A stretch of DNA of 36,120 bases from a virus, in IMG/VR virus record IMGVR_UViG_3300025671_000206, positions 1 to 36,120 of that record; one strand, written 5' to 3'. A model generated the notes under the pieces. It saw only the letters and a list, made by a program, of their open reading frames with translations, was not told where the DNA came from and ran no database searches. Within the stretch, counting starts at the first letter, position 1. Each line of letters starts with the position of its first letter. Both the position numbers and the translations under genes were made by a program. This document shows, piece after piece, positions 13,648-33,596 of this stretch.

Positions 13648-14312
13648 GACAGATTTACTATAAGGATACTCAAAAGGTTATTAATATGGGGCGAACCTCT
13701 GACTTCGTTCCGTATTATAACCCTATATCCGATGAAAACTTAGAAAGCGGAGTTATTAGACGGTTATTCGAGTTAGAGGATTATAAGGACTCGGAATATT
13801 ACGGAGTAGTTAGTCATAAGTTTTATAATAAGTTAAAAAAGGATTCTAATTATATTAAAGAAACTATCTTAAACGACGAGGAAAAAGCCGACGTTTATAG
13901 CTTCTTCGGTAAATTAGAAAAGGTTAACTTAGTTACTCAGGGCGTTAACTGGCATCCTCTATTTTTAGATATTTATAAGCTTATCTCCGATCGTTTAGAC
14001 TGGGGTATAGACTTAGAGGATAAGTCTTTATTATTCGAGCCTATTTACTCTAACCACTGGATATCGAGTAAGGAAACTTTTAAGGAGTTCGCTTTAGACT
14101 TTCTTATACCGGTAACCGATTTAATGAACTCTTCTAAAGTACTTAGAGACCTATGTAATCAGGACGCTAACTATATCTCTCGAGAGAAAATATCTCCGGA
14201 GCTATGCTTAGAAGTATTCGGTAGACCTTATTATACTTACCACTGTTTTATTTTAGAAAGGTTGTTCCCGATTTTCTGCTATTTACGGGACAAAAAAGTT
14301 AAACATATATGA
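13635..14312 (+). CDS. glycan-cluster protein, 225 aa (polysaccharide-locus-like)
   Basis: The opening VRQIYYKDTQKVIN, then DFVPYYNPISDENLESGVIRR, and SEYYGVVSHKFYNKLKK near residue 55 recall a family in bacterial polysaccharide loci that accompanies glycosyltransferases (proteins with iYYd...F.PydN and e-Y-fGv-SwkF). A role in transfer or modification of sugar chains is inferred. It overlaps the neighbouring genes on both sides. The composition is as TG/CA-poor as the core structural genes, so it is a long-term resident rather than a recent import. Confidence 0.5.
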   Translation: MLRVRQIYYKDTQKVINMGRTSDFVPYYNPISDENLESGVIRRLFELEDYKDSEYYGVVSHKFYNKLKKDSNYIKETILNDEEKADVYSFFGKLEKVNLVTQGVNWHPLFLDIYKLISDRLDWGIDLEDKSLLFEPIYSNHWISSKETFKEFALDFLIPVTDLMNSSKVLRDLCNQDANYISREKISPELCLEVFGRPYYTYHCFILERLFPIFCYLRDKKVKHI

Positions 14313-15007
14313 AGTTTTTAGTATTAGTACCGATATACCGACGTCACGCTGTTTTAAGGCTATTTAACGAAGGTTTAGAGAGTTTAAAAGGTAAAGGATA
14401 TAATATCGAAGTTTTAGCCGTAGGAGACGTAAACGACGAGCCTATAGCTAAAGAATTAAATTATAGATACGTTATTCATAGGAATATCTTAGGAGAAAAG
14501 TTAAATAAAGCTCTTAAAGTAGCTAAGAATATCGATTTCGACGCTATTTTAATGCTCGGTTCTGACGATATATTAAACTCCGCTACTTTAGATTTTTATA
14601 TAGATGCTTTTAATCACGATTATAAGTTTGTAGGGTTCTTAGACTGTTACTTCTACGACTTAGAGAAACGTAATATGATTAAATGGAACGGATATAGAGG
14701 AGAAAGAGCCGGAGAACCTATAGGAGCTTGGAGATGCTTTAAAAGAGAGCTTATAGAGGAGCTTAACTGGGAGCTTTGGGGTAATCAGCATCATTCTATC
14801 GATTATACGATGTGGGAGAAGATTAAGAAAAGGGAGGATATTTTAAAAGCTAAACTTTTCGAAGATATGTTTATCGGAGACTTAAAAACTTCGGAAAACG
14901 TAACTAAATTTCGTAAATTCGATAACTCGGTAATAGTAAACCCTTTAGACGGGTTAAACTTATTAGAAACGGACTTTAAAAATAAAATATTAAACTATGG
15001 AAAATAA
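14309..15007 (+). CDS. family 2-like (GT-A) glycosyltransferase, 232 aa
   Basis: Starts with a Rossmann-type strand and nucleotide-sugar binding loop (FLVLVPIYRRHAVLRLF), continues with a second strand (YNIEVLAVGDVNDEP) and has the metal-binding LGSDD at residues 84-87 where GT-A enzymes carry their DxD. The acceptor half is rich in aromatic residues (WNGYRGERAGEPIGAWR, NWELWGNQHHS). Probably cytosolic. The substrate cannot be told. It is joined by ATGA to the gene before and overlaps the acyltransferase gene by 11 bases, consistent with one pathway acting on host glycans, lipid A or virion proteins. Confidence 0.75.
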   Translation: MKFLVLVPIYRRHAVLRLFNEGLESLKGKGYNIEVLAVGDVNDEPIAKELNYRYVIHRNILGEKLNKALKVAKNIDFDAILMLGSDDILNSATLDFYIDAFNHDYKFVGFLDCYFYDLEKRNMIKWNGYRGERAGEPIGAWRCFKRELIEELNWELWGNQHHSIDYTMWEKIKKREDILKAKLFEDMFIGDLKTSENVTKFRKFDNSVIVNPLDGLNLLETDFKNKILNYGK

Positions 15008-15548
15008 TATCCACCCTACGGCGATCGTAGGAGAAAACGTTAAAATAGGTAAAGGTAATACTATCGGAGCTTACTCGGTTATTTACGACGGAGTAGAGAT
15101 AGGAGATAATAACGAAATAGGTAGTTTTGTAATTATCGGAGGTAGAGGAGAGATTAGAAAGGCTAACGAGTTTAACGGCAAGATAGTAATAGGTAACGAT
15201 AACTTAATTAATCATCACGTAACTATAGATAAGTCTATAGAGGGTTATACTTTATTAGGGTCTAATAATTTTATAATGACTAAGGCTCATTTAGGACACG
15301 ACGTAGCTATAGGTAATAACGTTACTATATCTTCCGGAGCTAATATAGGAGGACACGTAGTAATACACGACCACGCTAACGTAGGATTAAACGCCGAAGT
15401 ACATCAGAGGAAAATTATAGGTAGAGGAGCTATGGTAGGTATGGGAGCCTCTATTACTAAAGATGTTAAAGGATTCGAAAAAGTAGTAGGAGTTAATAGA
15501 GTTATAGGAGAAAACGAGCGTAAACTAAAGGAGCTAGGGATAGAATGA
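14997..15548 (+). CDS. LpxA-like left-handed beta-helix acyltransferase, 183 aa
   Basis: Repeated hexapeptides (IHPTAIVGENVKIGKGNTIG and onward) form a left-handed beta-helix. Residues KAHLGHD (His98, His101, Asp102), GGHV (His120) and VHQ (His136) line up with the catalytic and binding set of E. coli LpxA (His122, His125, Asp126, His144, His160). The late GVNRVIGENERKL recalls the LpxA GVNxxGLKR segment. At 183 residues it is shorter than LpxA (about 262) and lacks most of the helical C-terminal domain, so it may act on a small nucleotide sugar with acetyl- or acyl-CoA rather than acyl carrier protein. Confidence 0.8.
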   Translation: MENNIHPTAIVGENVKIGKGNTIGAYSVIYDGVEIGDNNEIGSFVIIGGRGEIRKANEFNGKIVIGNDNLINHHVTIDKSIEGYTLLGSNNFIMTKAHLGHDVAIGNNVTISSGANIGGHVVIHDHANVGLNAEVHQRKIIGRGAMVGMGASITKDVKGFEKVVGVNRVIGENERKLKELGIE

Positions 15549-31021: not shown

Positions 31022-31756
31022 ATGAAAAGAAAAGAGATTACAGAGTTTAACGAGGCGTTCGGTTATCCAGCACCTTTAAAGCCTACTACGTTAGCTAACC
31101 ACGGATTAAGAGGTAAGTTAATTATAGAGGAGCTTGAAGAGTATAGAGACGCTTGTAAGTCTAAGAATATAGTAGAGATAGCCGACGCTATCGGGGATAT
31201 GCTTTACTTAGTCTTAGGAGCTGCAGTAGAACACGGAATAGAAATAGAACCAGTATTCGACGAAATTCATAGAAGTAATATGAGTAAGTTAGGAGATAAC
31301 GGGTTACCTATTAGAAGAGAGGACGGTAAGGTATTAAAAGGACCAAACTACTTTAAGCCTAATATTAGTAAGACTTTAGTACATTCTATAAACTACGAGC
31401 CAGGTGTAGAGTACTCTCCGGATAAAAGCTTATGCGAGATAGACGTAGAGGTAGAGGAGTACGTTAGTAAAGTAGTAGATATAACGGCTAACTATTTTGA
31501 CGTTACGGTTAACTCTTTAGCTGGACCGAAGAGAAAGCACCCTCTAACGATCGCTAGACATATTATCAGCTACTTATGCTATAAGAGGTACGTTTATTGG
31601 TCTGTATTCGGTAAGTATTTAAGTAATATTATCGATAGAGATAGGACTAGCTTTATCCACGGAAATAAATTCGTTAATGATACTATAGAGTATGACGAGA
31701 AAATAGAACTAGCAGTTAAGGATATTACCGAGAAACTAAAAAAAGAGTTAAGATAA
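31022..31756 (+). CDS. MazG-like pyrophosphohydrolase fused to a DnaA C-terminal DNA-binding domain, 244 aa
   Basis: Residues 25-90 hold the all-alpha NTP pyrophosphohydrolase pattern: EELEE (36-40), EIADAIGDMLYLVLG (52-66) and FDEIHRSNMSK (79-89), like MazG/HisE enzymes that hydrolyse NTPs or dNTPs. Residues 149-215 fit DnaA domain IV: ITANYFDVTVNSLAG, GPKRKHPLTIARHIISYL (168-185) and the signature DRDRTSFIHG (205-214), cf. GRDHTTVxHA of DnaA. A nucleotide-cleaning enzyme joined to an origin-type DNA-binding domain is unusual and may locate nucleotide hydrolysis at the replication origin or act as a regulator. Confidence 0.7.
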   Translation: MKRKEITEFNEAFGYPAPLKPTTLANHGLRGKLIIEELEEYRDACKSKNIVEIADAIGDMLYLVLGAAVEHGIEIEPVFDEIHRSNMSKLGDNGLPIRREDGKVLKGPNYFKPNISKTLVHSINYEPGVEYSPDKSLCEIDVEVEEYVSKVVDITANYFDVTVNSLAGPKRKHPLTIARHIISYLCYKRYVYWSVFGKYLSNIIDRDRTSFIHGNKFVNDTIEYDEKIELAVKDITEKLKKELR

Positions 31757-31983
31757 TGAGCGAGTGGAGTATATTAATAGCTTTATTTAGAGCTACTACA
31801 CAGCAGAAGGGATTCTTACAAGGAGAGACTAAACAACACGCTAAGTTATTATTTAAACGCTGGGAGCGTGAAGGAGATAAGTTAGTAAACCTTATAGAGT
31901 CGATGTCTAACGAAGAGGAGTTAGAGAGAATAACGGAAGTAATAGAAAACGCAGTACACGAATTAAGAAAAGAGAGAGTATGA
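31756..31983 (+). CDS. small helical protein, 75 aa
   Basis: All-helical acidic protein (SILIALFRATTQQKGFLQGE, then ERITEVIENAVHELRKERV). It is joined to the genes on both sides by overlapping start and stop codons (TAATG and ATGA). No family recognised. Likely part of the nucleotide/DNA module with its neighbours. Confidence 0.55.
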   Translation: MSEWSILIALFRATTQQKGFLQGETKQHAKLLFKRWEREGDKLVNLIESMSNEEELERITEVIENAVHELRKERV

Positions 31984-32372
31984 AACAGGTAACATTATTC
32001 GGGAACGAAGAAAGCGGAGACGAAAAGAGATATACTTCTAAGATAGGTGCTCCTATTTACGAACCTAAGTATAGAAAGCCTCACGAGTTAGAGTTATACG
32101 ACGCTTCTAAAACGAGGAGACTAATTAACGAGATTAACGCCTCTAAGGTAACGGAAGATGAGAAAGCTTTTCTTATCGAGGCTGCAAGAAGGCATACGGT
32201 CTTTAATTACGAGAAGATCGCGGATTATTATGCTAAAGCTCCTAAAGAAGTCCAGGAGCTTATGGAGAAGTCCGCTCTAGTTATTATAGATTTCGAGAAA
32301 GCTATAGAATTAGGTTATATTAAACTTTCTAAAGATATTAGAAAACAATACTTAGAGGAGAATGCAGAGTAA
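31980..32372 (+). CDS. phage conserved protein with clamp-binding-like N-terminus, 130 aa
   Basis: Begins MKQVTLFG: QVTLF (3-7) matches the bacterial beta-clamp binding pentapeptide (consensus QL[SD]LF). The body (SKIGAPIYEPKYRKPHELELYD, then KTRRLINEINASKVTEDEKAF and RHTVFNYEKIADYYAKAPKEVQ) is a pattern I recall from phages next to ParB-like or methyltransferase genes, where its role is unknown. Interaction with the host sliding clamp is plausible, by the motif. It overlaps the next gene by 11 bases. Confidence 0.55.
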   Translation: MKQVTLFGNEESGDEKRYTSKIGAPIYEPKYRKPHELELYDASKTRRLINEINASKVTEDEKAFLIEAARRHTVFNYEKIADYYAKAPKEVQELMEKSALVIIDFEKAIELGYIKLSKDIRKQYLEENAE

Positions 32373-33195
32373 TTTAGATAACTTTTGCGTCTTTATCCTT
32401 ACTCACGGAAGACCGGATAACGTTATAACTAAGACTTCTTTAGAGAAGTCCGGTTATACCGGTAAAGTCTTTTACGTAGTAGATAACGAGGATAAGACGA
32501 TAGGAAAATATATCGAGAACTTCGGAGAAGAATCCGTTAAGGTATTCGATAAAAAGAGATTAGCGGACGAGGTAGACGAGGGTAATAACTTCGACGAGAG
32601 AAGGACGATTACTCACGCAAGAAATGCTTGTTTTGAAATAGCTAAAGATTTAGGTATAGAGTACTTCGTAGAGTTAGACGATGACTATACCGACTTCTTA
32701 TTAAGATACGAGAAAGGTAAAAAGGTTAAAGATTTAGACAGAGTCTTCGATAGTTTTTTAGACTTCTATAAGAGTACTCCTACTACTACTATCGCTTTCT
32801 CTCAGGGAGGAGATCATATAGGAGGTTTCTCCGGTACTAAGATGAAGCGTAAAGCTATGAACTCTTTTATATGCTCTACTAAACGTCCTTTTAAGTTTAT
32901 CGGAGCTATGAACGAAGACGTAAATACTTATACTACCTTATCCTCTCGAGGTAAATTATTCTTTACCTTTACGTCAGTACAATTAAATCAGAAACAGACG
33001 CAGAGTCAAGAGGGAGGGATTACGGATATGTATTTAAAATTCGGAACGTATTGTAAAGGGTTTACTACCGTATTAATGCACCCGTCGGGAGCTAAAGTAT
33101 CGATGATGAATAGTAGGAATACGCCGAGAATACACCACGCTATATCTTGGAAGAATACTACTCCTATGATTATTAACGAAAAGTATAAAAAGTAA
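32362..33195 (+). CDS. TET-associated-type glycosyltransferase (probable DNA base modification), 277 aa
   Basis: Opens FCVFILTHGRPDNVITKTSL (8-27), continues GYTGKVFYVVDNEDK, then ITHARNACFEIAKDLGIEYF and ELDDDYTDF (104-112), the metal-binding DDD of a GT-A fold. This matches what I recall of the TET/JBP-associated glycosyltransferase family in phages, thought to add sugar to modified bases such as 5-hydroxymethyl pyrimidines. No dioxygenase or hydroxymethyltransferase gene was seen in the window, so base modification would need genes outside. Alternative: a transferase for another acceptor. Confidence 0.65.
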   Translation: MQSNLDNFCVFILTHGRPDNVITKTSLEKSGYTGKVFYVVDNEDKTIGKYIENFGEESVKVFDKKRLADEVDEGNNFDERRTITHARNACFEIAKDLGIEYFVELDDDYTDFLLRYEKGKKVKDLDRVFDSFLDFYKSTPTTTIAFSQGGDHIGGFSGTKMKRKAMNSFICSTKRPFKFIGAMNEDVNTYTTLSSRGKLFFTFTSVQLNQKQTQSQEGGITDMYLKFGTYCKGFTTVLMHPSGAKVSMMNSRNTPRIHHAISWKNTTPMIINEKYKK

Positions 33196-33197
33196 TT

Positions 33198-33596
33198 ATG
33201 AAAGATAGATTTATAAAATTATTAGATTCGGTAGGTTATCCCTACCGGTCTATTAACTCGGTAGATAAAAAAGAGTTAGTAGAAATTCATAGAGCTATAT
33301 TTAAAAAGAGTAGTTCTTATTATTCGAGCCGTACCTGTAGCTCTTGTTACGTCTCTATGCTTAACGATCTCGTAATTAAGTACGGATTACCGAAGAGGAT
33401 AGAAACGGCTACGGATTACGAAACGAGAAAGGCTATCTGTTTAGACTGCTCGGCTACGAAAGGACAAGATGGACCTATCTATACTTGCGGGTCTTTAGGT
33501 AAATCTACTAAGGGTAGGTATCCTACTTGCGGTTGTATTATTAACGTTAAAGCGAGGTTTAAGATATTCTCTTGCCCTCGAGGGAAATGGAGTTAA
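33198..33596 (+). CDS. cysteine-rich, probable zinc-binding protein, 132 aa
   Basis: Eight Cys occur as C47xxC50, C81xxC84, C97, C111xC113 and C126, enough for two zinc sites. The end (CGCIINVKARFKIFSCPRGKW) is close to the CGC-x-K-x-R and CPxGKW ending I recall in small Cys-rich proteins of Bacteroidota phages. It lies two bases after the glycosyltransferase gene, so a joint function is possible. No enzymatic motif seen. Confidence 0.6.
   Translation: MKDRFIKLLDSVGYPYRSINSVDKKELVEIHRAIFKKSSSYYSSRTCSSCYVSMLNDLVIKYGLPKRIETATDYETRKAICLDCSATKGQDGPIYTCGSLGKSTKGRYPTCGCIINVKARFKIFSCPRGKWS

What the first reader, a model, noticed from the sequence alone, without database searches (positions are those of the whole stretch)
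32362..33596. TET-associated-type glycosyltransferase plus Cys-rich protein: possible DNA base modification
The protein pattern (THGRPDN, ARN, ELDDDY) fits the phage glycosyltransferases that accompany TET/JBP oxygenases and sugar-modified pyrimidines. If the phage DNA carries modified bases, sequence-context effects of that chemistry or of its repair might explain the CA/TG loss. The Cys-rich protein directly after it may assist. No dioxygenase or hydroxymethylase is in the window, so the link is a hypothesis only.
Basis: inference. Interest (0 to 1): 0.6.

Follow-up and report, generated by a model that had tools for sequence, protein, structure and literature searches.

The report
ParB-partnered phage DNA glycosyltransferase module
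This phage carries a sugar-transferring enzyme (TAGT) that almost always travels with a small ParB-derived partner protein and sits in a genome slot where relatives carry DNA methyltransferases, so it probably decorates phage DNA with a sugar, although no enzyme that makes the usual attachment point was found.

Summary
The glycosyltransferase is real: 32362-33195 is a TAGT (Pfam PF20691, 119 bits against a cut-off of 27.5). p130 and TAGT are nearly inseparable: TAGT lies nearby in 80/80 loci found with p130 and in 79/80 found with distant ParB versions (the exception is cut by a contig end). The pair fills a slot between two conserved genes. In relatives the same slot holds N6/N4 or C5 DNA methyltransferases, thymidylate synthase plus MazG, or nothing. 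Lactobacillus phages show the same swap independently, including a ParB_N-methyltransferase fusion. This supports a DNA-modification role. The Cys-rich gene belongs to the backbone and is present without TAGT. The CA/TG loss (rho 0.37) is a lineage trait: other TAGT loci have median 1.10, and TAGT-less relatives also lose CA/TG. p130-type TAGT phages lack TET and 5mC methyltransferases, and only 1 of 44 has a thymidylate-synthase-family gene, so the acceptor is unexplained. New variant of a known kind; no modified base was measured.

The parts
31980..32372 (+). p130: stand-alone C-terminal domain of phage 'ParB-like' proteins; near-obligate TAGT partner; all-alpha model with invariant P25, Y27, R71, H72, Y84, E96, D104
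   Evidence: phrog_620 positions 148-215; TAGT nearby in 80/80 loci found with p130 and 79/80 found with distant members; ParB_N present in 11 of 36 relatives, absent here; invariant residues; AF2 pLDDT 75 with no PDB fold match
32362..33195 (+). TAGT glycosyltransferase (GT-A type, acidic metal motif DDD at 106-108), overlapping p130 by 11 nt
   Evidence: PF20691 119.2 bits; phrog_842; GT-A fold matches
31756..31983 (+). left flank of the swap slot (75 aa), 89% identical in L096; abuts the Cys-rich gene directly in the empty-site relative L259
33198..33596 (+). right flank of the swap slot: Cys-rich protein, probably a zinc ribbon (inference); backbone gene, not part of the cassette
   Evidence: present at 70-88% identity in relatives without TAGT
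31022..31756 (+). PRA-PH/MazG-type nucleotide pyrophosphohydrolase with DnaA C-terminal domain; backbone gene upstream of the slot
   Evidence: PF01503 and PF08299; conserved in L086, L093, L096

Best explanation
31980-33195 is a two-gene DNA-modification cassette. TAGT transfers a nucleotide-activated sugar (or similar polyol) onto phage DNA, and p130 acts with it as a targeting or activating subunit, the counterpart of ParB-linked DNA methyltransferases. It occupies a plug-in slot for DNA-modification modules, and its likely purpose is protection from host restriction. The modification is probably partial or site-specific. Shown: TAGT membership, near-obligate pairing with p130, and replacement by DNA methyltransferases at the same junction. 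Inferred: DNA as acceptor, the protective role, and p130 as subunit. Unknown: how the acceptor group arises, because no hydroxylating or hydroxymethylating enzyme was found.
For: TAGT domain. Near-obligate pairing in both search directions, in phages of E. coli, Lactobacillus, Nocardia, Porphyromonas and Vibrio and in a haloarchaeal virus. Co-divergence r=0.80, 0/2000 permutations. Same-slot replacement by N6_N4_Mtase, three kinds of C5 methylase, or thymidylate synthase plus MazG, with an empty site in L259. Independent repeat in Lactobacillus phages, including a ParB_N+N6_N4_Mtase fusion in CR191. Donor-type genes or a second TAGT inserted between p130 and TAGT: His-phosphatase/cytidylyltransferase fusion, cytidylyltransferase, CofD/MobA-like transferases, TAGT paralogs. 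Literature: ParB domains often occur fused to DNA methyltransferases (PMC12783734); T6-type TAGT is thought to add a second glucose to glucosylated hmC in DNA (PMC13390438).
Against: No direct evidence that the DNA is modified. No acceptor-making enzyme was found: TET 0/56 (no positive control), C5 methylase 0/44, thymidylate synthase family 1/44. Palindromes remain avoided in the window (GGCC 1 seen against 24 expected, GCGC 4 against 24, GATC 32 against 95), as in relatives, which argues against full protection. p130 has no recognised fold.
Confidence: 0.62

Rival explanations
1. The TAGT glycosylates a non-DNA acceptor such as capsid or tail protein, RNA, or host surface glycan.
For: No base hydroxylase is encoded. 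GT-A enzymes have diverse acceptors, and the closest folds are polysaccharide and protein glycosyltransferases. In several unrelated phages the cassette lies beside terminase and capsid genes.
Against: Its slot is filled by DNA methyltransferases in relatives of two lineages, and its partner comes from a ParB family that is elsewhere fused to DNA methyltransferases (PMC12783734).
Confidence: 0.2
2. The phage uses a classical route: hydroxymethyl or hydroxy pyrimidine made by an enzyme outside the window or by the host, then glycosylated by TAGT (T6 or TET type).
For: The window is incomplete. T6 and Aeromonas phages 65 and avDM6 carry thymidylate-synthase-family genes, in T6 right beside the TAGT; the Aeromonas TAGTs lack p130. 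Some relatives of the window carry thymidylate synthase plus MazG in the same slot.
Against: p130-type TAGT records rarely carry such genes (1 of 44; none in the c5, jlb1, HHTV-2 or NTR1 complete genomes) and no Tet_JBP was found. In the window's relatives the thymidylate synthase is an alternative to TAGT, not a companion.
Confidence: 0.12
3. CA/TG depletion is caused by the DNA modification or its repair.
For: Both features occur in this window; the depletion is real (rho CA 0.40, TG 0.36).
Against: TAGT loci elsewhere have normal CA (median 1.10, n=230), and TAGT-less close relatives share the loss (0.36-0.61).
Confidence: 0.03

Closest known systems
TET-associated glycosyltransferase family (TAGT, PF20691), including phage T6 TAGT
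   Same: Same Pfam family, acidic metal motif, phage context
   Different: Aeromonas 65/avDM6 TAGTs lack p130 (tested; not tested for T6), and these phages and T6 carry thymidylate-synthase-family genes; the p130 type nearly always pairs with p130 and lacks them
ParB_N-linked phage DNA methyltransferases (for example Lactobacillus phage CR191)
   Same: Same slot upstream of terminase; ParB-type partner with a DNA-modifying enzyme
   Different: The effector is a glycosyltransferase and a p130 domain stands in place of the methyltransferase domain
E. coli Rac-type prophage gene ynaK followed by a 'GREB1-related' protein
   Same: Same ParB/p130-TAGT pair upstream of terminase; most of the query is found in 885 of 5426 complete E. 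coli genomes
   Different: ParB_N domain retained; ynaK is often annotated as incomplete or split
CmoX/CmoY carboxymethylcytosine pathway with ParBc protein (PMC12783734)
   Same: ParB-domain protein near a DNA-modifying enzyme
   Different: Unrelated chemistry (carboxymethyltransfer and ligase)

Membership tests
TAGT (PF20691) | Profile score above the curated cut-off | tested here: met
   119.2 bits against 27.5
TAGT (PF20691) | GT-A fold with acidic metal motif | tested here: met
   D107, D108 invariant in 36 relatives; fold matches up to E 1.6e-5
TET/JBP-TAGT hypermodification system | TET/JBP dioxygenase in the same genome | tested here: inconclusive
   No Tet_JBP match in the scanned window ORFs and none in 56 relatives' records, but that search had no positive control and the window genome is incomplete
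T-even type glucosyl-hmC pathway | dCMP hydroxymethylase (thymidylate-synthase family) present | tested here: not met
   None in the window record, which is incomplete; 1 of 44 p130-type records; present in T6
ParB partition protein | ParB_N (PF02195) domain | tested here: not met
   No Pfam match in the window p130; 11 of 36 relatives have it
DNA-modification module | Modified nucleoside in virion DNA dependent on the genes | not testable with these tools
   Needs mass spectrometry or nanopore data
DNA-modification module | Interchangeable position with DNA methyltransferases | tested here: met
   Two lineages

The most novel reading that the evidence does not exclude
The p130-TAGT pair glycosylates DNA without a TET, hydroxymethylase or 5mC step: either p130 itself creates the acceptor group on a base, or TAGT attaches a sugar directly to an unmodified base. 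It would be a self-contained, widely mobile DNA-glycosylation system present in tailed viruses of bacteria and archaea.
Probability: 0.3. Interest if true: 0.85.

Novelty: new variant of a known kind. Interest (0 to 1): 0.58.

Why it matters
If right, TAGTs in small phages form a two-gene DNA-modification system distinct from the TET and T-even routes, with an undescribed helical domain as near-obligate partner and a clear missing-chemistry question. It is testable in ordinary organisms: dairy Lactobacillus phages with and without the cassette, and an E. coli prophage version found in about 16% of complete E. coli genomes.

Tried and rejected
(1) CA/TG loss caused by TAGT: rejected by composition of TAGT-positive and TAGT-negative relatives. 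(2) Cys-rich gene as helper: rejected, because it is present without TAGT. (3) Window as a complete circular genome: rejected; L003 continues 1 kb past the end with no match to the window start. (4) Search for an acceptor-making enzyme: Tet_JBP, thymidylate synthase and C5 methylase are absent or rare in p130-type records. N6_N4_Mtase is above cut-off in 3 of 44. (5) PDB sequence search with the TAGT profile found nothing credible. The p130 structure search found no match; the ParB hits come from the N-terminal domain. (6) A methyltransferase swap was not seen in E. coli prophages: all four E. coli regions inspected have the TAGT upstream of the same terminase. (7) The key comparative-genomics paper on TET-linked systems (doi 10.1093/nar/gkt573) is not held, so earlier description of the ParB-TAGT link could not be checked.

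Full report
WHAT IS THERE. The ORF at 32362-33195 (277 aa) is a TAGT: PF20691, 119.2 bits, cut-off 27.5; phrog_842, 223 bits. The acidic motif is conserved and D107/D108 are invariant among 36 relatives. Its AlphaFold2 model (pLDDT 84, pTM 0.85) matches GT-A glycosyltransferases in the PDB at E 1.6e-5. p130 matches positions 148-215 of phrog_620, 'ParB-like partition protein'. Longer relatives carry an N-terminal ParB_N domain (11 of 36); the window protein has only the C-terminal domain, which matches no Pfam family. Its model is all-alpha (pLDDT 75) with no PDB fold match.

THE PAIR IS NEAR-OBLIGATE. Of 73 IMG/VR loci found with the TAGT, 71 have p130, in nearly all cases directly upstream; the other two begin at a contig end near or inside the TAGT. 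A reverse scan with p130 gave 80 loci, all with TAGT. A third scan with distant ParB-type members gave 79 of 80, the exception ending at a contig end. The loci of these scans overlap in part and are the best-scoring ones only. All 28 phage records with p130 in the annotated collection also appear in the TAGT list, and the Porphyromonas ParB protein contains the domain at E 1.6e-14. Pairwise distances of the two proteins correlate at r=0.80, reached by 0 of 2000 permutations; tight linkage alone would also give such a correlation.

THE SLOT IS FOR DNA MODIFICATION. In the window the pair lies between a 75-aa gene (31756-31983) and the Cys-rich gene (33198-33596). In relatives the same two genes, or the MazG gene and the Cys-rich gene where the 75-aa gene is missing, enclose other modules: a helicase plus N6_N4 methyltransferase (L096, L250, L252; partly seen in L079, L083; fused into one ORF in L249), C5 cytosine methylases of three kinds (L086/L088/L120, L094, L248/L260, the last after a ParB-like gene), a DPPY-type methylase (L093), thymidylate synthase plus MazG (L254-L258), no recognised methylase (L092, L095), and nothing at all in L259, where the 75-aa gene runs directly into the Cys-rich gene (Pfam). 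The same exchange appears in an unrelated lineage. Upstream of terminase, Lactobacillus gasseri phage jlb1 has ParB-TAGT, L. johnsonii Lj771 an N6_N4 methyltransferase, and L. helveticus CR191 a ParB_N-N6_N4 methyltransferase fusion. A published study states that ParBc domains frequently occur fused to DNA methyltransferases (PMC12783734). I infer that p130-TAGT does the same kind of job: it modifies phage DNA.

MECHANISM. TAGT presumably transfers an activated sugar or polyol. Genes inserted between p130 and TAGT fit donor supply or stepwise transfer: a His-phosphatase/cytidylyltransferase fusion in at least 14 loci, a stand-alone cytidylyltransferase (L209), CofD and MobA-like transferases (L239), a second TAGT in six loci, and a SAM-dependent methyltransferase in three. 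The acceptor is the open problem. Tet_JBP was found in 0 of 56 records (no positive control rang), C5 methylase in 0 of 44 and thymidylate-synthase family in 1 of 44, although small complete genomes such as c5, jlb1, HHTV-2 and NTR1 are included. More distant TAGT phages behave differently: T6 and Aeromonas phages 65 and avDM6 carry thymidylate-synthase-family genes, in T6 beside the TAGT; the partial genome of Vibrio phage 1.124.O does not. The Aeromonas and Vibrio 1.124.O TAGT proteins show no p130 domain and their records gave no p130 match; T6 was not tested for p130 by profile. Genome size confounds this contrast. One reading is that p130 replaces the acceptor-making step or directs TAGT to another target; this is inference.

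HOW MUCH MODIFICATION. The window still avoids GGCC (1 seen, 24 expected), GCGC (4, 24) and GATC (32, 95), as relatives do. The cassette shares the window's composition (CA rho 0.32 inside, 0.37 outside), so it is probably not a very recent arrival. Both facts fit partial or site-specific modification better than full base replacement. In L. delbrueckii phages the cassette is decayed in Ld25A, Ld3 and Ld17 but intact in c5, so it is dispensable in some settings and these phages form natural test pairs.

CA/TG loss is genuine (CA 0.40, TG 0.36), but 230 other TAGT loci have median 1.10 and TAGT-less close relatives have 0.36-0.61, so it is a lineage property unrelated to the enzyme. The Cys-rich protein is a backbone neighbour.

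LIMITS. All evidence is comparative; no modified base has been measured. IMG/VR records are often fragments, the window included. Whether the ParB-TAGT link was described earlier could not be checked, because the most relevant paper is not held.

Noticed in passing
window 1-36120: Extreme CA/TG depletion (rho 0.40/0.36; CA across codon boundaries 0.12) with CG and TA raised. Relatives grade from 0.36 to about 0.86 along the lineage, independent of TAGT. Cause unexplained.
   Followed up: partly
window 1-36120; L096, L086, L259: Strong avoidance of GGCC, GATC and CATG, varying between relatives (L096 GATC 1 of 37 expected; L086 CCGG 0 of 8), suggesting restriction pressure.
   Followed up: partly
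window 31022-31756: PRA-PH/MazG pyrophosphohydrolase fused to a DnaA C-terminal DNA-binding domain.
   Followed up: no
L254-L258 (for example L256:4464-5576): Relatives carry thymidylate synthase plus MazG in the slot used by TAGT here, possibly a nucleotide-level base modification route.
   Followed up: no
L289:4773-5729 and at least 13 similar loci: Histidine phosphatase fused to a cytidylyltransferase between ParB/p130 and TAGT, suggesting a dedicated nucleotide-activated donor.
   Followed up: partly
L156:7211-8924 (E. coli phage vB_EcoS-673R7): The pair is the prophage gene ynaK plus a 'GREB1-related' protein; most of it is found in 885 of 5426 complete E. coli genomes, and laboratory strains keep only an ynaK fragment.
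   Followed up: partly
window 14309-15548: Weak GT2-like ORF followed by a hexapeptide-repeat transferase within the structural region.
   Followed up: no
L003:7413-7772: Pyrimidine-dimer DNA glycosylase (PF03013) about 0.8 kb downstream of TerL, just outside the window.
   Followed up: no
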